Source of the DNA: a virus
Length of the DNA stretch: 25,472 nt
Direction: 5' to 3' (one strand)
Virus record (IMG/VR): IMGVR_UViG_3300044492_000227
Location: 1-25,472 of that record
Below the pieces are notes generated by a model, which made no database searches, was not told the origin of the DNA, and saw only the letters and a list, made by a program, of their open reading frames with translations. Shown piece by piece: positions 2,618-25,462 of the stretch. How positions within the stretch are numbered: position 1 is the first letter of the stretch; every line of letters begins with the position of its first letter. Both the position numbers and the translations under genes were made by a program.

Positions 2618-3181
2618 CTACTTACGAGCGGTTAAGGTAGCGATAATGTCCTGCGCTGCCTCTTTCCAGAAAGTGACCGCGTGCTGCTGATATTCCTGAT
2701 TGCGCGGAATAATGGCAGGGTGCAGGCCGTAGCCGAGCGTATGGTCAAAGTCGCAGGTGTAGCCGGACTTGTCGACCGAGTTTTGCGCGTTGCGCCAGTC
2801 CTTGTTAAGCGTGGCAAACCACATCTCGCTGATAGCGGGCGGTTCAACCAGTAGATCCCCATAAGCACGCGATGAAGCCCAGTGGGGGACCATGATTATC
2901 GCGGTGCCACCAGGTTGCAGGACGCGGTACAACTCGTTGGCAAAGTGGACGCGTTCGCTGCGCGTGAGGTACTGGACCAGGTAGTTAGCCTGCGCCTCAG
3001 CGACTGAGTTCGCCTTCCACGGCCACTTGGCACGCAGGTCAGTTACTACCTCGACACCTTCAGCCTCGTGTAGATCGACACCGATGAAGCCTGCTGGCCT
3101 ACTCGCACCTTTACCAGTCCCCAAGTCGAGTTTCAAACCTTTGGCGGGCTCGTGCAGAGTAAATTTCAAATTAGTAGACAA
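2618..3181 (-). CDS. SAM-dependent class I methyltransferase
   Basis: A 187-residue protein with a Rossmann methyltransferase motif I (LDLGTGKG, about residues 18-25), a following acidic residue after beta-2 (FIGVDLHE), and a motif similar to the type 11 family (ANELYRVLQPGGTAIIMVPHW). The start is a TTG at 3181, chosen because a strong Shine-Dalgarno (GGAGGAAG) sits 6 bases upstream. It overlaps the upstream glycosyltransferase by 11 bases, so the two are probably translated together. The substrate cannot be read from sequence. Its place between a glycosyltransferase and a Ser-rich surface protein suggests methylation of a sugar or of a virion protein, not of DNA (no target-recognition domain or DPPY/PPC motif). 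Well supported as a methyltransferase fold; target unknown. Confidence 0.82.
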   Translation of the reverse strand: MSTNLKFTLHEPAKGLKLDLGTGKGASRPAGFIGVDLHEAEGVEVVTDLRAKWPWKANSVAEAQANYLVQYLTRSERVHFANELYRVLQPGGTAIIMVPHWASSRAYGDLLVEPPAISEMWFATLNKDWRNAQNSVDKSGYTCDFDHTLGYGLHPAIIPRNQEYQQHAVTFWKEAAQDIIATLTARK

Positions 3182-3893
3182 TATCTTCCTCCAGTGAGTA
3201 GTGGCCTACCTTCACATCACAATCGACCGCCGCACGGTGACCGTACTTGCGGGCATCGCTCCAAAAAAACAAGTCTTGGGTACAAACACCATCGGTAGTC
3301 TGCGTAACAAACCACGGTCGGCGTAGTTTCTTATCCTTGAACAGTTTCATGCGCCACAGGTTGAAGCCCATGCCGGTACCATTGCATTCAACGAGGCCGC
3401 CAGCGGGATCCGGTAATTGCGGGCGGAAGTTGAGTACTGGATCTTTCGGGTCACCCCAGATTTGGGCCACGCCGCCTATGCCTTTCGTGTAGTACAAGCC
3501 ACCAATGCAACTGAGACGTGGATTAGCTTCCATGCGGGCGAGGAGTTTCATAACGCCATCACTCGGTGGCATGTTGTCATGCTCGATGGTCAACAAGTAC
3601 TCCCACTGGCTCAACTCAGGGTGGGCCAACACTTGCTCGATTGCGGTGGAGTACGCTGCTCCCACTTCCATGCCGATCGCGAGTAGTCGCACGACGGGGT
3701 TGTTGGGCGGGAATACGAGGTTCCAGTGCGAGAGGGCGACTTTGGCGGCAATGGTGTCGCTGGTTGGTAACAGGACGATGATGCGCTGACGCTTCCACGT
3801 AGCCGCCTTCTCCAGTCGTGAGCGCGTACGCTTCAGGTCGCCATTGTTGGTGCCGGCGGTGGGCATCTCTTGGATTAGCAACTGTGGTTTCAT
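3171..3893 (-). CDS. Glycosyltransferase, GT-A/family 2-like
   Basis: A 240-residue protein with the shape of a small GT-A glycosyltransferase. A beta-strand opening (RIIVLLPTSD, about 37-46) precedes a helix carrying NxxV/ML. An acidic metal/nucleotide-sugar motif EHDN lies at residues 104-107, followed by MPP. The middle has CIGGLYYTKG, an acceptor-side GTGMGFNLWR, and a late QDLFFWSDARKYGH with a final VKVGHYS whose His is typically metal-binding in this group. The EHD is a DxD variant. It lies 3 bases after the upstream structural gene's stop and overlaps the downstream methyltransferase. Together with that methyltransferase it probably decorates a phage surface protein; host-polysaccharide modification is an alternative. 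No clear Shine-Dalgarno, so coupled translation is likely. Confidence 0.82.
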   Translation of the reverse strand: MKPQLLIQEMPTAGTNNGDLKRTRSRLEKAATWKRQRIIVLLPTSDTIAAKVALSHWNLVFPPNNPVVRLLAIGMEVGAAYSTAIEQVLAHPELSQWEYLLTIEHDNMPPSDGVMKLLARMEANPRLSCIGGLYYTKGIGGVAQIWGDPKDPVLNFRPQLPDPAGGLVECNGTGMGFNLWRMKLFKDKKLRRPWFVTQTTDGVCTQDLFFWSDARKYGHRAAVDCDVKVGHYSLEEDIVY

Positions 3894-5608: not shown

Positions 5609-7093
5609 CTAGTAGGCTACATAGCTAAACGAGTAAGTATCCTCATCAATTACATCCGGCTTCATTGCTGCCCTGTAACACATCGCGCCGGCAATAAATG
5701 AATCAGGTGGATGGCCCCCGCCGCGCAGGTCGTCGTTAGTGCAGTAGCGATGATCGTTCTCACAGTGGCGAATGCGCGCGCTTACTATAGCGCAGTTTTC
5801 AATCGCGGCGATGTATTGTGTAAATACGTCGGAGCGGGTTTGGCCCGTGAGGATGACCGGCTCAGCGCCCGCGTTCTGGTAATCCTCGACCACGTCGCCC
5901 AGGCCCGTCGCGTCATGGCACGAGTTGCCAGGGTAGCGAGCAACTCGCGCATCGAACTTGCTGATCATCATGGGCCAGGGGAGGCGTCCGGTACGCTGCC
6001 AGGCCACGCGCCTGAACGGCTTACAGTCAATACGCCAGGTATCAATGATCGTGTAGTCGGACTTCTTGGCCCAGTCACAGCCTGTAGCATACTTGGCTCC
6101 GGTAACTGGCTGCTCGATCACGATCTCCTCGTTTAGCTTCCCATCATACTGGCCGAGGCTAGCTTGAAAACAGGCATCCACCTTCTCCGGCAGGATGGCG
6201 CGATCTTCGGGTGAAGGTTCCTGCAGGTCATACTCGGCGGCAAACATGGCGGCAGTGACTTCGGTGCGCTTGGAGGCAATCTCCTCCGACTTGAGCCAAC
6301 CATCGACAGGGTTGGATGACTCCAGGTAGCACCACTTGTAGACGGGCCACGAGTTGTCATACGCCCGTCTCAACACTTCGCTGAAGGTGGCATCTGGATA
6401 ATGGTGGGTGGAACTCATCACTGTCTGCTTGGCCACACTCGCGCTCCCCATTGGCTGGCCCATCGCAGCGTCCAGTATCTCCAATTCCATCTCATCCACT
6501 TCATCGAGGCGCATTCGTTGGGGATGCGGACCACGAGCCGACTTACTGGAGGCCATGAGGGCCGTCACCCTGCCCCCGCCTGAGTACTTGGTCCGGCGTT
6601 GAGTGCTCTCCTGACCATCGCTACTGAAGTCCTGCAGATACTCCATGACGCGCAACGCCTGCTCACCTGATCCACCGAGAATGGTAACGTCCGCACCGAG
6701 TGCCGTCGCCTCCGCATGGCCCAGCAGCGCTAACAGGTGCGACTTACCACCAAAACCACGACTGGCCAGCCAGACTGACACCACCGAGCGCGCAAAGTAA
6801 GCGTCAGCAAAGGCACGAAACGGCGTGGTATGCTCATCACAAACCTGCGTATCAGGTATGGTGATGTTAAATACGCGCTTAATATAGGCTTTAAGCTGCT
6901 CATCGGTGACCGGCGCGGCCTGATCGTCGCCATCCTGCACTTGCCGCAACCACATCATCACCGCATACTTCTCCTCCGGCTTCCAACTGCGCCAATTGCT
7001 CGCCGCCAGCGCATCAATCGTCCCCTGAATCTGCTCCGGTGACCAACTGCGCCAGTCCTCATCCAACTTGTAGGCTCTCACCACGCGTCCCAT
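5609..7093 (-). CDS. terL: Terminase large subunit (packaging ATPase/nuclease)
   Basis: The motor that cuts concatemeric phage DNA and pumps it into the prohead. With the ATG at 7093 it is 494 residues; in-frame starts at 7111 (ATG) and 7126 (TTG) are possible and none has a clear Shine-Dalgarno. The ATPase domain carries Walker A SRGFGGKS (about 111-118) and Walker B MRLDEVDE (about 194-201), with a MSSTHH coupling motif after it. The C-terminal RuvC-like nuclease has its acidic residues in GCDWAKKSD (about D340), HDATGLGD (about D394) and HPPDSFIAGA (about D464). Length and motif order fit the family. The small terminase lies upstream on the same strand after a 215-base gap; methyltransferase and structural genes follow downstream where a portal gene would be expected. 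Confidence 0.95.
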   Translation of the reverse strand: MGRVVRAYKLDEDWRSWSPEQIQGTIDALAASNWRSWKPEEKYAVMMWLRQVQDGDDQAAPVTDEQLKAYIKRVFNITIPDTQVCDEHTTPFRAFADAYFARSVVSVWLASRGFGGKSHLLALLGHAEATALGADVTILGGSGEQALRVMEYLQDFSSDGQESTQRRTKYSGGGRVTALMASSKSARGPHPQRMRLDEVDEMELEILDAAMGQPMGSASVAKQTVMSSTHHYPDATFSEVLRRAYDNSWPVYKWCYLESSNPVDGWLKSEEIASKRTEVTAAMFAAEYDLQEPSPEDRAILPEKVDACFQASLGQYDGKLNEEIVIEQPVTGAKYATGCDWAKKSDYTIIDTWRIDCKPFRRVAWQRTGRLPWPMMISKFDARVARYPGNSCHDATGLGDVVEDYQNAGAEPVILTGQTRSDVFTQYIAAIENCAIVSARIRHCENDHRYCTNDDLRGGGHPPDSFIAGAMCYRAAMKPDVIDEDTYSFSYVAY

Positions 7094-7190
7094 AGTCGCG
7101 AAGTGTAGCATAAGCCCGCATAACAACTGATTGCAGCCGATTATGACGAGAAAAGTGGGCTATTTAGAAAAATACCAAAATTATTCGCAA

Positions 7191-7341: not shown

Positions 7342-7800
7342 CTAGTCGCCGTTGTGCTTTTTAGCGATCGCGTCGCTGGGGAGGGTTTGCGCTGTAAGCT
7401 GACGTGTAAATCGTGAGGTTAGTTCGCTTTCCACTTGGTTGACATCAATAGTCACGCGGTCACGATACTTAGCGCGATGGGCTTTAAGATAGAAGATAGA
7501 TGAGAGTGTGTCGCCGGCTATAGCTTTCTTAAACACGCTCGTTTCGACCATGTCTACTGAGTCTTCGTGGGAGTCTTCTACAGCAGCGACGAAGGCCTGG
7601 TCTGCCTGCATCCACTTGTAGACAGTGGCGCGATGTATGCCGATGGCGTGCGCAGCATGAAACACGGAACCTTCACTGCGATACGCATCAATAAACCTAC
7701 GCTTTCTGTCTACTGTCGCCATGTCGCCGCTAAACTCATAGTCGCATACGTCTATAAAGTCATTAGAATCAACTATTTGCGGTCTTATAGCGGCGCTCAT
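7342..7800 (-). CDS. terS: Terminase small subunit
   Basis: A 152-residue DNA-recognition subunit of the packaging motor. It shows the usual plan: a helix-turn-helix region (RRFIDAYRSEGSVFHAAHAI then IHRATVYKWMQAD, about residues 34-67) and the family signature for interaction and oligomerisation near the C terminus (SSIFYLKAHRAKYRDR, about 101-116). Start is the ATG at 7800; no Shine-Dalgarno is visible. A TATGCT hexamer lies about 12 bases upstream, so the 5' leader may be short. It is the first gene of the leftward module and diverges from the rightward accessory operon across 7801-7958, where I could not find a convincing promoter in either direction. Confidence 0.88.
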   Translation of the reverse strand: MSAAIRPQIVDSNDFIDVCDYEFSGDMATVDRKRRFIDAYRSEGSVFHAAHAIGIHRATVYKWMQADQAFVAAVEDSHEDSVDMVETSVFKKAIAGDTLSSIFYLKAHRAKYRDRVTIDVNQVESELTSRFTRQLTAQTLPSDAIAKKHNGD

Positions 7801-8340: not shown

Positions 8341-8368
8341 CCATTTATAACTAAGAGGAGTGTGCACT

Positions 8369-9607
8369 ATGTGTAGTTGTGGTCAATTGGAATTACCGGA
8401 GGTTAAGGTTGCCTCATGCGATAGCTGCGGACAATGTTTCAATTGTTGTCCCAGCGTAAAGTGTGAGTCATGCGATGAGACGATATTGCCGCATGATATG
8501 TGCGCGGTATGCGATAGCTGCTCCTTATGCTGTGACTGCGAAGTCTGTAACGGCTGCGATGAGAGGTTCGCTAAAGGTAGTGACGACATCTGCTCAACGT
8601 GCGATGAGTGTAAGTCATGCTGCGAATGTTGGCATTGCGAGTCATGCGATGAGAACTACACGGAGAATACCTCGTGTTGCTCAAATTGCGATAGCTGTGA
8701 ATCGTGTTGTGAGTGTCAGTATTGCAATGGCTGCGATGAGACACGAAACTCTGACAGGTTTTGTAGACAATGTGATTATTGTTCTGACTGTTGTGAGTGT
8801 AGTGATGAGGAGGACGAAGATAGCAGTGTAGTCAAGCAGTATTCTGCGGACGTCTTAGACTACTGCTCCTTCTATGGTAAACCGAAAGATAAAACATGGT
8901 TCGGTATTGAACTTGAGGTTAACGTCAAGTCATCGCACGATCTGGATGATAGTGCCCAGTCTGTCGCAAGTGATCTGGAAGACTTTGCCATCTTGAAGCA
9001 CGACAGTTCAATTGGTCGTGGTTTTGAGATTGTTACTGCTCCAGCAACCTTAGAAGCACATCGTGAACAATGGCGCGCATTCTGGCGTTCTAATCCCACT
9101 TCACACTTGACAGGTTATGAGTCAGGCTCGTGTGGTATGCACGTACACATCTCACGACCTAGCGCGTTAGTTACCGGCAAAATGATTGTGTTTCTAAACT
9201 CAACAGAGAATGCTGACTTTGTTCGCGTGATAGCTGGTCGTTCAAACTCTACGTGGGCAAAAGTCTGTTCGTCTAAGAAGGTAACAGACTGGAATAAGTC
9301 ATACGACCGTTACGAGGCTTTGAACGTTATGAATAGCAAGACTGTTGAATTGCGCATCTTTCGTTCAACACTGAAGGAGTCTTCGTTCTGGAAGAATCTT
9401 GAGTTTACGCATGCGCTACTGCACTTTGCACGCACTGCCAGTATTGACAGTCTGACTGTTGACTCATTCCTGGCATTCATTTGTCAGTCCGATAATCGCA
9501 AGCAGTATCGCAACCTCATCGCGTTCTTAGTCCGCAAAGGTTATGCGATGCCAGTTAAAGCGCTCCCATTGCCAGTCAAACAAACGGAGGTTCAGTTATG
9601 TGCTTAA
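8369..9607 (+). CDS. Putative amidoligase (glutamine-synthetase-like fold) with Cys-rich N terminus
   Basis: 412 residues. The ATG at 8369 is chosen because AAGAGGAG (8353-8360) is spaced 8 bases from it; an upstream GTG lies inside that site. Residues 1-147 hold 40 cysteines in five tandem repeats. Residues about 175-395 match the phage/bacterial amidoligase family, carboxylate-amine ligases with a glutamine-synthetase-like fold. The motifs are WFGIELEVN (E181, E183), GRGFEIVTAP (E220), CGMHVHISR (H258, H260) and VELRIFRST (E327, R329), which supply the metal/ATP and substrate acids. The reaction would be ATP-dependent amide-bond formation; the substrate (peptide, cell-wall component or protein) is unknown. 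It overlaps the glutamine amidotransferase gene by 10 bases, which could supply ammonia. Family assignment is by motif reading. Confidence 0.8.
   Translation: MCSCGQLELPEVKVASCDSCGQCFNCCPSVKCESCDETILPHDMCAVCDSCSLCCDCEVCNGCDERFAKGSDDICSTCDECKSCCECWHCESCDENYTENTSCCSNCDSCESCCECQYCNGCDETRNSDRFCRQCDYCSDCCECSDEEDEDSSVVKQYSADVLDYCSFYGKPKDKTWFGIELEVNVKSSHDLDDSAQSVASDLEDFAILKHDSSIGRGFEIVTAPATLEAHREQWRAFWRSNPTSHLTGYESGSCGMHVHISRPSALVTGKMIVFLNSTENADFVRVIAGRSNSTWAKVCSSKKVTDWNKSYDRYEALNVMNSKTVELRIFRSTLKESSFWKNLEFTHALLHFARTASIDSLTVDSFLAFICQSDNRKQYRNLIAFLVRKGYAMPVKALPLPVKQTEVQLCA
8417..8800 (+). repeat. Five tandem cysteine-motif repeats (protein-level) in the amidoligase
   Basis: The repeat consensus is C-D-x-C-x2-C-C-x-C-x2-C-x2-C-D-E, then 8-10 variable residues ending C-x2, with unit lengths near 31, 30, 29 and 28 residues. 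The first copy is variant (FNCC) and the fifth is truncated after CCEC. At DNA level only short words recur (TGCGATAGCTG, TGCGATGAG), so the copies have diverged while the cysteines are kept. Clusters of this density usually bind Zn2+ or Fe-S; which one is not shown. Confidence 0.85.
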
Positions 9608-10446
9608 TCATCGACAAGCCAGCTAATACCAAAACGCCTAAGGATGTTGTTAACAGTGCGATTGAATTGAATCGTGATGGGTTCGGCATTATGTACGCTG
9701 AGCATGGGAAACTAGTCATAGAACGTTCGCTTGACTCCGCATGGTTCACAGAACGCATGCGAGCGCTTAAGTCTAAGCCGCTGATAGCACATTGCAGGTT
9801 CGCTACGCACGGGAGTGTAGATCTATCAAACTGTCATCCGTTTCTAGTTACCGATGACATAGCAATGGTTCACAATGGCGTGCTCGCTAACTTTGGTAAT
9901 AGCGTCGTGTCCGATACTGCGGAGTTTGTAGAACGCATCCTTAGACCGCTACTGACTGATTTTCCGCATGCGTTTGGCAACCCGACCTTTACACGCATTC
10001 TGGAGTCTATGATCGGACGTGATAATAAGATGATACTACTGCGGTCCGATGGCGCCATCTGGAGTCTTAACCGTGCTGAAGGTCTGGAGTATAACGGAGT
10101 ATGGTTGAGTAACACGTATGCCTGGCGTCGCACTGTTACGCGCTCAGTAGTGTCAACCTCCGCGAAACAATCTGCTAAACGGCTATGGGATAACTTGCCA
10201 TCCGAGCGCTACGCTATGGCAGACGACTATGTGTATGACGACGTGTATGACGACTACAAACTCGTAACAGACGAGGAGTTAGACGAGGAGTTAGACGTCT
10301 CGTTTGACTATCACAAGTCCAAGTCAGATGAGAGTCAGATGACCTTTAACGATCTGGGCAAACTCCCGTACGTGAAATTGCTAGACCTGTGCTACGACGA
10401 TCCGGACCTGATAGCAGACTTAGTATTCTTTGCGTTCAACTATTAG
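9598..10446 (+). CDS. Class II glutamine amidotransferase (Ntn-hydrolase)
   Basis: 282 residues, start ATG 9598 with GGAGG at 9586-9590. Removal of Met would expose Cys2 (M-C-L-I-I) as the N-terminal nucleophile. Other class II glutaminase landmarks follow in order: NRDGFGIMY (about 26-34), the glutamine-binding HCRFATHG (R67 to G72), NCHPF, and the oxyanion-hole HNGVL (H92-N93-G94). It would hydrolyse glutamine and release ammonia for a synthase partner. No synthase domain is fused; the overlapping upstream amidoligase is the obvious partner. The last 80 residues are strongly acidic (ADDYVYDDVYDDY, DEELDEELD) and of unknown role. It resembles stand-alone class II glutaminases more than PurF/GlmS, which are longer. 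Confidence 0.85.
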   Translation: MCLIIDKPANTKTPKDVVNSAIELNRDGFGIMYAEHGKLVIERSLDSAWFTERMRALKSKPLIAHCRFATHGSVDLSNCHPFLVTDDIAMVHNGVLANFGNSVVSDTAEFVERILRPLLTDFPHAFGNPTFTRILESMIGRDNKMILLRSDGAIWSLNRAEGLEYNGVWLSNTYAWRRTVTRSVVSTSAKQSAKRLWDNLPSERYAMADDYVYDDVYDDYKLVTDEELDEELDVSFDYHKSKSDESQMTFNDLGKLPYVKLLDLCYDDPDLIADLVFFAFNY

Positions 10447-12271: not shown

Positions 12272-12381
12272 GTTGATGGTTAGGTTATGTTAGCCTCGTT
12301 CTCTATTGTAGCTCTACTAATATCATAGGGAAATAGTACAGGTACAATAGGAAACGTCCCTCACCTAACCTAACCATCGAC
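12272..12381. repeat. 110-bp imperfect palindrome between convergent genes
   Basis: Three complementary blocks share one centre at 12326/12327. They are 12272-12287 with 12366-12381 (16 bp, one mismatch), CTATTGTA 12303-12310 with TACAATAG 12343-12350 (8 bp), and TACTA 12315-12319 with TAGTA 12334-12338 (5 bp). Spacers are equal on both sides (15 and 4 bases). Each outer arm reads as tandem pentamers (GGTTA GGTTA TGTTA on the left; GGTTA GGTTA GGTGA on the right, lower strand). The right arm covers the last codons of the helicase gene. It sits where rightward and leftward transcription meet, so it could be a bidirectional terminator, a protein-binding site or a replication origin. Confidence 0.75.
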
Positions 12382-13629
12382 TAGTGAGTCAGAGTCAAGC
12401 AGGGAGTCGTCAATCAGGGCTAAACCCTTCCAGTAGCTTACGTTGTGGGGTTTGATGTTGGTAAATCCGAGGCGATCCAGGTCAGCGTGAAATTCCTGAA
12501 TTGTGCTGGCTCGAACCCCTCGATAGGTGCTCCAGGTCTTGAATTTGAGCCACAGACTTGCCATTTTGACTGACTTTTCGGGGTCACGCTCACAGCATTC
12601 GTTGACGAAGGTGAGAGCCAGATCGTTCGCTTGCCGGTAGGTATCACGGGCGGCAACCAGTTCAGACGGGACCGCGATTGACTGCTCAGACTGCATCTCG
12701 CGCAACCCTTGAAGTGCCCAGTTACAGACCGCCATCGGATGCCTCAGGATAGCTTCTTTCAACTTCGGATCTCGGTCAGACTCAGCGATAGAGGGAAAGT
12801 GAATCGGGAGGATGCGGCGAAACATGCCGATACCTTCCATGCCGATCGCTGGCAGCACGTTCATACCCCAGATAATCTTGGCATGAGGTCGGAGCGTGTA
12901 CGGGTCCATGTACTTGCGCTCTACCGGTATCGGTTCACCTGAGATTATTGCATTGATAATGTGCGTGGCGCGTACCAGTCGACCAGGTAGTTCAGTACTA
13001 ACTGCCAGCGTGCGCCCAGGAAGCTGCGAGAGCGCAAACTGCGACCGCTCTATCTCAGACAGCCCCAACACGCACGCCTTAGCCCCCAGCATCGCGCACA
13101 AAGCCTCAATATACGTTGACTTGCCCCCGCCAGGCGGTCCCCACAGCCACAGTGCTATCTCATACTTCGTCTCAGGGGTCAGACAATATCCGGCAAACCG
13201 GCGCATAAAGTCCGCGTGGGGTAGCGAGGTCAGAAAGCGATCCCACTCAGGCAGGGTAACTTCAGGCTCGTAGTTGAAGCTCAGACGGTTAGTAACGTAA
13301 TGAGTCGGGGAATGTGGGACCGTCGACCAGGTTTGCAAGTCAAGCACGCAATCAGCAAAGACTATAATGTCAGAATTAGCGTCAAAAAGTGCGTCAGACA
13401 CCCGCAAGCGTTGCTTACAGAGTTCTGTGACTGATGAGACAACGCTAGAGGTGACCTTCAGTGTGGGATGCTTGGACGCGAGGGTTTGTACGTCATTCTT
13501 GATTGCTAGTTCAGGCACAGACGCCCATGCGCCTTGCTCATACCTGCGCCACTCCCCTAGACCGTAGCAGGTCGTCCCCTGGTACTGCTTCAGGAAGGCA
13601 TTGCGCACTTCAAGATGCGGTGATCCCAT
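12370..13629 (-). CDS. SF3/poxvirus D5-like helicase (phage/plasmid primase-helicase family)
   Basis: 419 residues. An N-terminal D5_N-like region (about 80-150: IIVFADCVLDLQTW, then LPEWDRFL, FMRRFAGYCL) leads into a helicase core. Core motifs are Walker A GPPGGGKST (164-172), a Walker-B-like RTLAVSTELP (206-215) whose acidic residue is the Glu, sensor motif C AKIIWGMNVLP (N257) and an arginine pair FRRILP (271-272). Such proteins unwind DNA at phage or plasmid origins. No catalytic primase domain is visible, so this is probably the helicase half only. It is transcribed leftward, opposite to its neighbours, with the HTH protein as first gene of a two-gene operon 10 bases upstream. Start ATG 13629 lacks a strong Shine-Dalgarno. 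Confidence 0.88.
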   Translation of the reverse strand: MGSPHLEVRNAFLKQYQGTTCYGLGEWRRYEQGAWASVPELAIKNDVQTLASKHPTLKVTSSVVSSVTELCKQRLRVSDALFDANSDIIVFADCVLDLQTWSTVPHSPTHYVTNRLSFNYEPEVTLPEWDRFLTSLPHADFMRRFAGYCLTPETKYEIALWLWGPPGGGKSTYIEALCAMLGAKACVLGLSEIERSQFALSQLPGRTLAVSTELPGRLVRATHIINAIISGEPIPVERKYMDPYTLRPHAKIIWGMNVLPAIGMEGIGMFRRILPIHFPSIAESDRDPKLKEAILRHPMAVCNWALQGLREMQSEQSIAVPSELVAARDTYRQANDLALTFVNECCERDPEKSVKMASLWLKFKTWSTYRGVRASTIQEFHADLDRLGFTNIKPHNVSYWKGLALIDDSLLDSDSLVDG

Positions 13630-15013: not shown

Positions 15014-15562
15014 GTGAGAGTTTTAGTCGCGTGTGAGTTTTCGGGAATTGTGCGCGATGCGTTTATTGCTCGTGGCTACGATGCCTGGTCCTGCGACCTA
15101 TTGCCGACTGAGCGCGAAGGTAATCATATTCAAGGCAACGTGCTTGGTCTGTTAGATGATGTTGACTGGGATTTACTGCTCGCGTTCCCGCCCTGCACTC
15201 ATCTTGCGGTTAGCGGCGCTCGATGGTTCAAAGACAAACAGGTAGAACAAGTTGAGGCAATCAAGTTCTTCAAGTTGTTGGCTAATGCGAACGTGCCACG
15301 AATAGCTATTGAGAATCCTATCCGGATCATGTCGCGCCACTATCGCAAGCCGGATCAAATCATTCAACCCTGGCAGTTTGGTCACGGTGAAACAAAGGCG
15401 ACATGCCTGTGGCTCAAGAATCTACCACTACTGATACCGACTGAGATCGTTGAAGGGCGCAAGGCACGAGTGCATCGTGAACCGCCTTCGCCGGAGCGAT
15501 GGAAGAACCGATCTCGGACATACCAGGGAATTGCTGACGCGATGGCTGAGCAGTGGAGTTAG
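15014..15562 (+). CDS. DNA (cytosine-5) methyltransferase-like protein, compact phage type
   Basis: 182 residues from a GTG at 15014 with GGAGGG just upstream. It opens with a SAM-binding ACEFSGIVRDAF motif I and an acidic DLLP after strand 2. The catalytic PPC loop is FPPCTHLAVSG (C61) and the ENP motif is IAIENP (100-102), followed by a GHGETKATCLWLKNLP segment typical of phage C5-methyltransferase-like proteins. At under 200 residues it is much shorter than full M.HhaI-type enzymes and lacks a separate target-recognition domain, so specificity may be low or activity altered. Methylation of phage DNA against host restriction is the likely role. No restriction nuclease is nearby. Confidence 0.82.
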   Translation: MRVLVACEFSGIVRDAFIARGYDAWSCDLLPTEREGNHIQGNVLGLLDDVDWDLLLAFPPCTHLAVSGARWFKDKQVEQVEAIKFFKLLANANVPRIAIENPIRIMSRHYRKPDQIIQPWQFGHGETKATCLWLKNLPLLIPTEIVEGRKARVHREPPSPERWKNRSRTYQGIADAMAEQWS

Positions 15563-24670: not shown

Positions 24671-24921
24671 TGCCAAAAGGGCACTATCAACGTAAGTCTC
24701 GCGGGCGATACAGACTAATCCTACCCGACTATGATGGCGGCGCACTCCAAGTAGAATGCGCCTACTGCGGCGCGAAGGTAGGAGAAACTTGTTGGGCACT
24801 CAGGTCGGTACGTGGGGAACCGGCAGATACAATCCACGCACCACATAAGACTCGTATGAAAGCAATGGTTCAAGCGCGATTAAAACAGAAGGAGACTCCA
24901 AATGAAACCCCCACTAACTGA
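24670..24921 (+). CDS. Phage zinc-finger protein (CxxC...C...H type)
   Basis: 83 residues from ATG 24670, overlapping the previous stop (TGATG). Residues about 27-63 hold CAYCGAKVGETCW followed by HAPHKTRM, the C-x2-C-x6-C...H pattern of small zinc-binding domains widespread in phages and actinobacterial proteins. A DNA- or RNA-binding regulatory role is usual but not proven. It overlaps the endolysin gene by 20 bases. Confidence 0.7.
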   Translation: MPKGHYQRKSRGRYRLILPDYDGGALQVECAYCGAKVGETCWALRSVRGEPADTIHAPHKTRMKAMVQARLKQKETPNETPTN

Positions 24922-25462
24922 CACCGATTACGAAGCCGCTGCTACCCGACTGGGCTGCGAGGTCGCTGCTATCAAGGCTGTGGCTGAAGTCGAGAGTGGC
25001 CCACACGGTGGCTTCCTGCCGGACGACACGCCAGTCATCCTGTTCGAGCGCCACTTGTTTGCGCGCCTAACTAACCACGTCTATGACCACGCACACCCTG
25101 CTATCTCAAACCCCAGCCCTGGCGGTTACGGCAAGGTGCTCGATCAGCCGGCCCGACTGGCTGAGGCGAGCGCGCTCGATCGCGATGCGGCATTGCAAGC
25201 CTGCTCATGGGGTCGCTTCCAGGTCCTCGGGGCCAACTGGCGTGATCTCGACTACGAGTCATTACAACAATTCGTGAACGCGATGTATGCAGGCGAGGCT
25301 GAGCAATTGGACTCGTTCGTCAGGTTCATCCAGCACAACGGGTTGACGGGCGCGCTGAGGACGCATAACTGGACCGCGTTCGCGCGTCGCTATAATGGGC
25401 CTAACTTTCATATTAACCATTACGACACGAAGCTGGCCGAGGCTTACGCGAGGCACAAATGA
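24902..25462 (+). CDS. Endolysin, N-acetylmuramidase (PF11860/DUF3380 type)
   Basis: 186 residues, ATG 24902 after AAGGAG. It matches the N-acetylmuramidase family along its full length: a VAEVESG segment with the likely catalytic Glu (E31), GGFLPDDTPVILFERHLF (36-53), CSWGRFQVLG (101-110), and a late ARRYNG. It cuts the glycan strand of peptidoglycan at the end of infection. No signal peptide or transmembrane segment is present, so export needs a holin, plausibly the gene that starts at 25459. No separate cell-wall-binding domain. Confidence 0.92.
   Translation: MKPPLTDTDYEAAATRLGCEVAAIKAVAEVESGPHGGFLPDDTPVILFERHLFARLTNHVYDHAHPAISNPSPGGYGKVLDQPARLAEASALDRDAALQACSWGRFQVLGANWRDLDYESLQQFVNAMYAGEAEQLDSFVRFIQHNGLTGALRTHNWTAFARRYNGPNFHINHYDTKLAEAYARHK

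What the first reader, a model, noticed from the sequence alone, without database searches (positions are those of the whole stretch)
8369..10446. Amidoligase plus class II glutaminase: a two-gene amide-forming system
Seen: two overlapping genes with amidoligase motifs (FGIELEVN, HVH, ELRIF) and an N-terminal-Cys class II glutaminase (RFATHG, HNG). Known: glutamine-synthetase-fold amidoligases and class II glutaminases both take part in ATP-dependent amide or peptide synthesis, and phage amidoligases have been noted in comparative genomics. Inferred: ammonia from the glutaminase feeds the ligase to amidate a carboxyl group on a phage or host molecule such as peptidoglycan or a virion protein. 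The substrate is unknown.
Basis: partly seen in the sequence, partly recalled or inferred. Interest (0 to 1): 0.75.

Follow-up and report, generated by a model that had tools for sequence, protein, structure and literature searches.

The report
Phage amidoligase–glutaminase pair with cysteine array
This virus carries two adjacent genes that almost always travel together in phages and bacterial mobile elements and probably form one enzyme that takes ammonia from glutamine and fixes it onto a carboxyl group; the pair was already known, but here the ligase carries an unusual array of cysteine repeats, likely metal-binding, that looks like a target-recognition part.

Summary
ORF A (8369-9607 +) is a glutamine-synthetase-fold amidoligase and ORF B (9598-10446 +) a class II (Ntn) glutaminase; they overlap by 10 bases. 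Expected catalytic residues are invariant in 59 and 51 relatives, and predicted structures match YbdK/GS and GlmS/EgtC. Pairing is near-universal: both genes are adjacent in 78/80 and 78/80 viral loci and 76/80 bacterial-genome loci; most exceptions are at contig ends. Gene order is swapped in four loci; the trees agree (r = 0.82). The pair is not new: it was predicted for phiEco32 (Iyer 2009, cited in PMC10580990) and reported in Marvin and OM43 phages. A scan of 2.9 million viral contigs found the array on three more amidoligases, of the distant phiEco32/LUZ24 clade, so one array sits on two ligase lineages. Related pairs also lie beside relaxase/recombinase genes, on elements without a virion, arguing against a virion substrate. 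Most likely it is a two-subunit, glutamine-dependent carboxyl-amidating enzyme acting on a host molecule chosen by the Cys domain. Substrate unknown.

The parts
8354..8360 (+). Probable ribosome-binding site AGAGGAG for ATG 8369
   Evidence: Sequence
8369..9607 (+). ORF A, amidoligase (412 aa from ATG 8369; 415 aa if GTG 8360 is used)
8363..8803 (+). N-terminal Cys array: 41 Cys and 27 CxxC in the first 165 residues; units at residues 48-77, 78-106, 107-134, 135-148, consensus CxxCDxCxxCCECxxCxxCDE-x8-10; predicted Zn-binding
   Evidence: single conserved C93xxC96-x16-C113xxC116 finger in relatives
8885..9547 (+). Ligase core, residues 176-396, glutamine-synthetase/YbdK fold
   Evidence: VIA Z 12.3 to YbdK over 212 residues, GS up to Z 11.8
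8909..8917 (+). E184-L-E186, predicted metal-binding ExE
   Evidence: Invariant in 59 rows
9140..9148 (+). H261-V-H263; hhalign pairs it with GMHCH of E. coli GlnA
9347..9355 (+). E330-L-R332; hhalign pairs it with IEVR of E. coli GlnA and VEVR of YbdK
9598..10446 (+). ORF B, class II glutamine amidotransferase (282 aa)
9598..10137 (+). Ntn glutaminase domain, residues 1-180, with nucleophile Cys2, R67-T70-G72, H92-N93-G94 and D106 invariant

Best explanation
ORF A and ORF B are two subunits of one glutamine-dependent carboxyl-amidating enzyme. B, an N-terminal-Cys class II glutaminase, hydrolyses glutamine to glutamate and ammonia. A, a GS-fold ligase, activates a carboxyl group with ATP as an acyl phosphate, and the ammonia attacks it to give a primary amide. 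The N-terminal Cys array of A, probably zinc-binding, recognises the molecule to be amidated; in most relatives this is one or a few LIM-like fingers, here it is multiplied. The acceptor is most likely a host protein or host cell-envelope precursor. Status of each step. Shown by computation: family and fold of both proteins, conservation of catalytic residues, near-obligate pairing, the array and its recurrence. Inferred: ammonia transfer, metal binding, substrate recognition by the array, host target.
For: Fold: A matches YbdK (VIA Z 12.3, 212 residues, rmsd 3.8), glutamine synthetases (Z up to 11.8), plant glutamate-cysteine ligase (11.0), and Pup ligase/depupylase by Foldseek. B matches GlmS glutaminase and EgtC (both Z 13.0). 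Residues: ExE, HxH and ExR invariant in A, and C2/R67/N93/G94/D106 in B; hhalign pairs B's RFATHG and HNG with those of E. coli GlmS, E 2.5e-7. Pairing: 78/80, 78/80 and 76/80 adjacent; of eight exceptions five are cut by a contig end. The order is reversed, G before A, in L113, L118, L121 and L169, so the genes have been re-linked rather than merely inherited in place. Tree distances correlate at r = 0.82, against a maximum of 0.15 in 999 shuffles. Against a free-glutamate acceptor: it would give a futile glutaminase/glutamine-synthetase cycle (inference). Against a virion acceptor: related pairs in Ruminococcaceae sit beside DUF960, resolvase, integrase and relaxase genes. Array as a specificity module: it occurs on the window's ligase and on three ligases of the phiEco32/LUZ24 clade, with 36% identity to the L267 array (E 3e-14).
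Against: No complex or ammonia tunnel was modelled, and the two proteins were never seen fused. EgtC, equally close in fold to B, is not an ammonia donor. The A-B tree agreement partly reflects shared descent of the genomes, for which there was no control gene. Co-occurrence was measured on the best 80 hits of each search, not on all. The array itself is modelled with low confidence (pLDDT 33-80), so zinc binding rests on Cys spacing alone. The mobile-element context is for relatives at 25-30% identity, mostly one bacterial family, and only one or two loci were read gene by gene.
Confidence: 0.6

Rival explanations
1. Gamma-glutamyl make-and-remove pair, as EgtA/EgtC in ergothioneine synthesis: A joins glutamate through its gamma-carboxyl to an amine, and B, an EgtC-like Ntn hydrolase, later cuts it off. 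No free ammonia is used.
For: B is as close to EgtC as to GlmS in fold (both Z 13.0) and its best Pfam family is GATase_4. A is closest to YbdK and also matches plant glutamate-cysteine ligase. Gamma-glutamyl cyclotransferase (PF06094) lies in the genomes of four relatives and is fused to B in phage C75C1 (the fusion is seen in the ORF); phiEco32 and LUZ24 also carry it.
Against: With only two conserved genes, making and cutting the same bond has no net product; no conserved intermediate enzyme was found beside the pair. NCBIfam puts the window's B nearer GlmS (4e-10) than EgtC (1e-8), and the B proteins of L086 and L113 match GlmS but not EgtC. PF06094 and PF14395 are absent from the window, which is however a fragment.
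Confidence: 0.15
2. Peptidoglycan-precursor amidation, the form proposed by Iyer et al. 2009 for phiEco32 as reported by later papers: the pair amidates the D-Glu or diaminopimelate carboxyl of cell-wall precursors and so blocks competing phages. This is a special case of the best explanation.
For: Cell-wall modification against superinfection is the idea cited in PMC10580990 and PMC11318856. Amidation of these groups by GatD/MurT and AsnB-type enzymes is known chemistry in bacteria (general knowledge). A host-surface effect fits carriage by both phages and mobile elements.
Against: No direct evidence in anything I could read. A large protein-like Cys array is not an obvious recogniser of a small precursor. 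Relatives occur in mycobacteria and clostridia, where these amidations are often already done by the host (general knowledge).
Confidence: 0.15
3. The pair amidates a virion protein of the phage, as suggested by the first reader.
For: It lies in tailed phages, here beside replication genes and near the terminase.
Against: Related pairs occur on relaxase/recombinase elements without a virion. In MEP402 the pair lies just before the replication genes, not with structural genes.
Confidence: 0.05

Closest known systems
phiEco32 / LUZ24 amidoligase gene cluster (Iyer et al. 2009, known here only through papers citing it; PMC3890496)
   Same: Amidoligase next to a class II glutamine amidotransferase in a phage; both proteins are detected by the profiles of this family.
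   Different: Those clusters also hold COOH-NH2 ligase, ATP-grasp and gamma-glutamyl cyclotransferase genes. Their ligases start directly with the catalytic core and have no N-terminal Cys fingers. They fall in a different ligase clade (support 0.995).
Two-gene pair of OM43 phages MEP401/402 and Mycobacterium phage Marvin gp105-106
   Same: Same two genes, same order, no accessory enzymes annotated beside them; the pair is already noted in PMC10580990.
   Different: About 24-31% identical ligases. The window's N-terminal array of 27 CxxC motifs far exceeds any member with the usual fingers (next highest 10).
E. coli YbdK and glutamine synthetase (GS-fold ligases)
   Same: Fold of the A core; HxH and ExR motifs line up with GlnA.
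   Different: 9-16% identity; sequence-only hhalign is marginal (E 0.016-0.075); no glutaminase partner and no Cys array.
GlmS glutaminase domain / EgtC
   Same: Fold and catalytic residues of B.
   Different: B is a separate gene with its own C-terminal tail; GlmS is fused to a sugar isomerase and EgtC is a hydrolase.

Membership tests
Amidoligase_2 (PF12224), GS-fold COOH-NH2 ligase | Profile match over the curated cut-off | tested here: inconclusive
   Window protein alone 18.4 bits against a cut-off of 22; 54 of 59 aligned relatives match PF12224 at E <= 0.01, best 6.1e-13
Amidoligase_2 (PF12224), GS-fold COOH-NH2 ligase | GS-like fold | tested here: met
   Core pLDDT above 80-90; VIA Z 12.3 to YbdK, up to 11.8 to GS
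Amidoligase_2 (PF12224), GS-fold COOH-NH2 ligase | Conserved ExE, HxH and ExR catalytic motifs | tested here: met
   E184, E186, H261, H263, E330, R332 invariant in 59 sequences
Amidoligase_2 (PF12224), GS-fold COOH-NH2 ligase | ATP-dependent ligase activity | not testable with these tools
   Needs an assay
Class II glutamine amidotransferase (Ntn) | N-terminal nucleophile Cys after Met removal | tested here: met
   M1-C2 invariant in 51 sequences
Class II glutamine amidotransferase (Ntn) | Arg, Asn-Gly and Asp of the glutamine pocket | tested here: met
   R67, N93, G94, D106 invariant; RFATHG and HNG line up with GlmS
Class II glutamine amidotransferase (Ntn) | Ntn fold | tested here: met
   VIA Z 13.0 to GlmS glutaminase 1xff and EgtC 4zfk; PF13230 above cut-off
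Class II glutamine amidotransferase (Ntn) | Ammonia channel to a synthase partner | not testable with these tools
   No two-chain prediction was possible
phiEco32/LUZ24 multi-gene amidoligase cluster | COOH-NH2 ligase (PF14395) in the cluster | tested here: not met
   No match in the window record or in 22 of 23 other IMG/VR relatives; present in LUZ24, phiEco32 and the L162 record. The window is a fragment, but the genes flanking the pair are all inside it
phiEco32/LUZ24 multi-gene amidoligase cluster | Gamma-glutamyl cyclotransferase (PF06094) | tested here: not met
   Absent from the window record; present in four IMG/VR relatives, C75C1, LUZ24 and phiEco32
LIM-type double zinc finger | Profile match of the N-terminal fingers | tested here: inconclusive
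   3 of 59 relatives hit PF00412 (best 2.3e-6); the window does not. The best PDB sequence hits of the alignment are LIM proteins at E 0.02

The most novel reading that the evidence does not exclude
The tandem Cys array is an exchangeable target-selecting module that phages have attached to amidoligases of at least two deeply separated clades, making a modular system that amidates carboxyl groups of chosen host proteins, i.e. a phage post-translational amidation of protein side chains or C-termini that I found no description of.
Probability: 0.2. Interest if true: 0.75.

Novelty: new variant of a known kind. Interest (0 to 1): 0.42.

Why it matters
No substrate was reported in any phage amidoligase paper that could be read, although the pair turns up in hundreds of viral contigs. 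The near-universal pairing across phages and relaxase/recombinase elements narrows the question: the target should be something that a host supplies to both. The finger domain, and its extreme form here, gives a handle for finding the target by pull-down. If the target is a protein, it would add glutamine-dependent amidation to the ways phages modify their hosts.

Tried and rejected
Single-sequence search for close ligase relatives in viral contigs gave none; the alignment search gave 553 confirmed candidates, best 80 kept. No DNA-level match to any phage record. TRF finds no tandem repeat at DNA level in the array, so the repeats have diverged. The promoter/terminator scan gave nothing above chance. 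hhalign of the ligase alignment against single YbdK and GlnA sequences was marginal, so the fold match rests on structure. Of the 24 array-pattern matches, several are unrelated Cys-rich proteins (L251, L260, L263, L266, L258, L250) or poly-Cys artefacts such as L256; only L254, L267, L270 and L261 share the unit. Virion-protein substrate rejected as unlikely (see rivals). Free glutamate as acceptor rejected because of the futile cycle. Iyer et al. 2009 and the Marvin paper were not held, so what they say is taken from papers citing them; whether they mention Cys-rich domains could not be checked. One comparison failed from wrong coordinates.

Full report
What is there. The window is a 25,472-base IMG/VR virus record from a tailed phage: terminase small subunit at 7342-7800 -, a terminase-like large subunit at 5609-7126 -, D5-type primase/helicase 12370-13629 -, Sak4-like and exonuclease genes, and an endolysin at 24902-25462 +. 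The two genes of the finding lie on the + strand between the packaging and replication genes. ORF A ends at 9607 and ORF B begins at 9598, an overlap usual in translationally coupled genes. The better start of A is ATG 8369, 8 bases after AGAGGAG. Residue numbers below count from GTG 8360.

What the proteins are. B reaches PF13230 GATase_4 above its cut-off. Its model (pLDDT above 90 over nearly all of residues 1-170) aligns to the glutaminase domain of GlmS and to EgtC at VIA Z 13.0. Cys2, Arg67, Thr70, Gly72, His92, Asn93, Gly94 and Asp106 are invariant in 51 sequences, and RFATHG and HNG align with the same motifs of E. coli GlmS. A is weak against Pfam on its own (PF12224, E 2e-3, under the cut-off), yet 54 of 59 relatives match that family. 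Its core model (residues 176-396) aligns to YbdK at Z 12.3 and to glutamine synthetases up to Z 11.8, with the Pup ligase and depupylase and plant glutamate-cysteine ligase also found. The ExE, HxH and ExR residues are invariant, and hhalign, at marginal significance, pairs the last two motifs with those of E. coli GlnA.

Do they belong together. Three searches were tallied with profiles in the Python box. Seeded by B in viral contigs, 78 of 80 loci have A directly upstream; of the other two, the ORF of B in L067 starts 31 bases from the contig end and L076 shows no ligase upstream. Seeded by A in viral contigs, 78 of 80 have B next to it; the other two stop at the contig end. Seeded by A in bacterial and archaeal genomes, 76 of 80 have B next to it; two of the rest stop near the contig end, and L176 and L216 are real exceptions. 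In L113, L118, L121 and L169 the order is reversed. Distances in the two trees correlate at r = 0.82 (shuffles at most 0.15); part of this is common descent. These are the best-scoring 80 of 196, 553 and 556 confirmed candidates, so very distant members are under-sampled.

The first 165 residues of A hold 41 cysteines (25%, against 2% in the rest) and 27 overlapping CxxC motifs; the next highest of 216 family members analysed has 10. They form units of about 29 residues: CxxCDxCxxCCECxxCxxCDE and 8-10 more. In the wider family one finger, C93xxC96-x16-C113xxC116, is conserved in at least 90% of sequences, and LIM is the zinc-finger family that most of the few members with any such Pfam hit match (3 members). 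Bacterial members can show two such fingers in tandem (L226). So the window's array looks like this finger multiplied. A pattern scan of 2.9 million viral contigs for the unit gave 24 hits; apart from unrelated Cys-rich proteins, four share the unit: L254, L267, L270 and L261. Three of them are amidoligases (L270's full gene was read from L273), each with a glutaminase beside it. The window's array is 36% identical to that of L267 over 154 residues (E 3e-14 with compositional adjustment). In the ligase tree those three fall with phiEco32, LUZ24 and C75C1 (support 0.995), whereas the window falls among marine two-gene phages (0.90-0.94 at the enclosing nodes). The same array therefore sits on two separate ligase lineages, by domain exchange, parallel expansion, or loss elsewhere; these data do not decide which.

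How it most likely works. B frees ammonia from glutamine; A activates a carboxyl with ATP and amidates it; the finger domain presents the target. The chemistry follows from the families, the coupling from the pairing; neither was shown biochemically. Free glutamate is an unlikely acceptor because the pair would then only undo itself. A virion protein is unlikely because many bacterial relatives lie beside DUF960 (36 loci, nearly always directly upstream), resolvase (24 loci), tyrosine integrase (23) and relaxase (20) genes, as seen gene by gene in L226, that is, on what look like integrated mobilisable elements. The main rival is an EgtA/EgtC-like pair that adds and removes a gamma-glutamyl group: EgtC is as close in fold as GlmS, and gamma-glutamyl cyclotransferase lies in the genomes of four relatives and is fused to B in C75C1. 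It is less likely because no intermediate enzyme is conserved and NCBIfam scores favour GlmS.

What is known. PMC10580990 reports the pair in OM43 phages and cites Iyer et al. 2009 (phiEco32, cell-wall modification against superinfection) and Mageeney et al. 2012 (Marvin). PMC3890496 lists amidoligase, glutamine amidotransferase, ATP-grasp and COOH-NH2 ligase in a LUZ24-like phage. PMC11318856 repeats the superinfection idea. The two cited originals were not held and not read. The pair is therefore not new. The array-bearing form is, as far as could be checked, undescribed; the literature check is limited to open-access full texts.

Verdict. Real and well supported, already known as a pair, with an uncommon architecture that may be the key to its target. 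New variant of a known kind, interest 0.42.

Noticed in passing
L261:5833-7560 (-): The same Cys-array unit is fused to a 576-aa phage protein with no Pfam match; that 48.6-kb record has no amidoligase or glutaminase detected. The array is not confined to amidoligases.
   Followed up: partly
L085:5001-5897 (C75C1, WJE88161.1): The gene annotated gamma-glutamyl cyclotransferase is a class II glutaminase fused at its C-terminus to a PF06094 domain.
   Followed up: partly
L083:4794-6155 (Marvin gp105): Annotated glutamine amidotransferase domain protein, but it is the amidoligase; gp106 is the glutaminase.
   Followed up: yes
L189-L245: Several copies of the pair per genome in Ruminococcus flavefaciens and Butyricicoccus, with a DUF960 gene directly upstream in most of 36 loci. 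The role of DUF960 here is unknown.
   Followed up: partly
L162:4359-9283: A 365-kb viral contig carries two ligase matches, two glutaminase matches and a COOH-NH2 ligase (PF14395) together.
   Followed up: no
L169:7533-8324: A contig of an archaeal (Nitrosotalea) MAG holds the pair in reversed order with an ATP-grasp gene related to phiEco32 gp80 (E 1.8e-33).
   Followed up: no
L251:4024-5613, L260:4132-5721, L263, L266: Viral proteins of about 450-530 aa with 97-100 cysteines in CC/CxC runs; unrelated to the array here.
   Followed up: no
window 15014-15562 (+) and 3171-3893 (-): A DNA methyltransferase (phrog_757, E 1e-69) and a weak glycosyltransferase-like match (phrog_12406, E 7e-4).
   Followed up: no
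window 8360-9604 (+): PF12224 misses this protein and several relatives at its thresholds, so Pfam-based counts of phage amidoligases are probably too low.
   Followed up: yes
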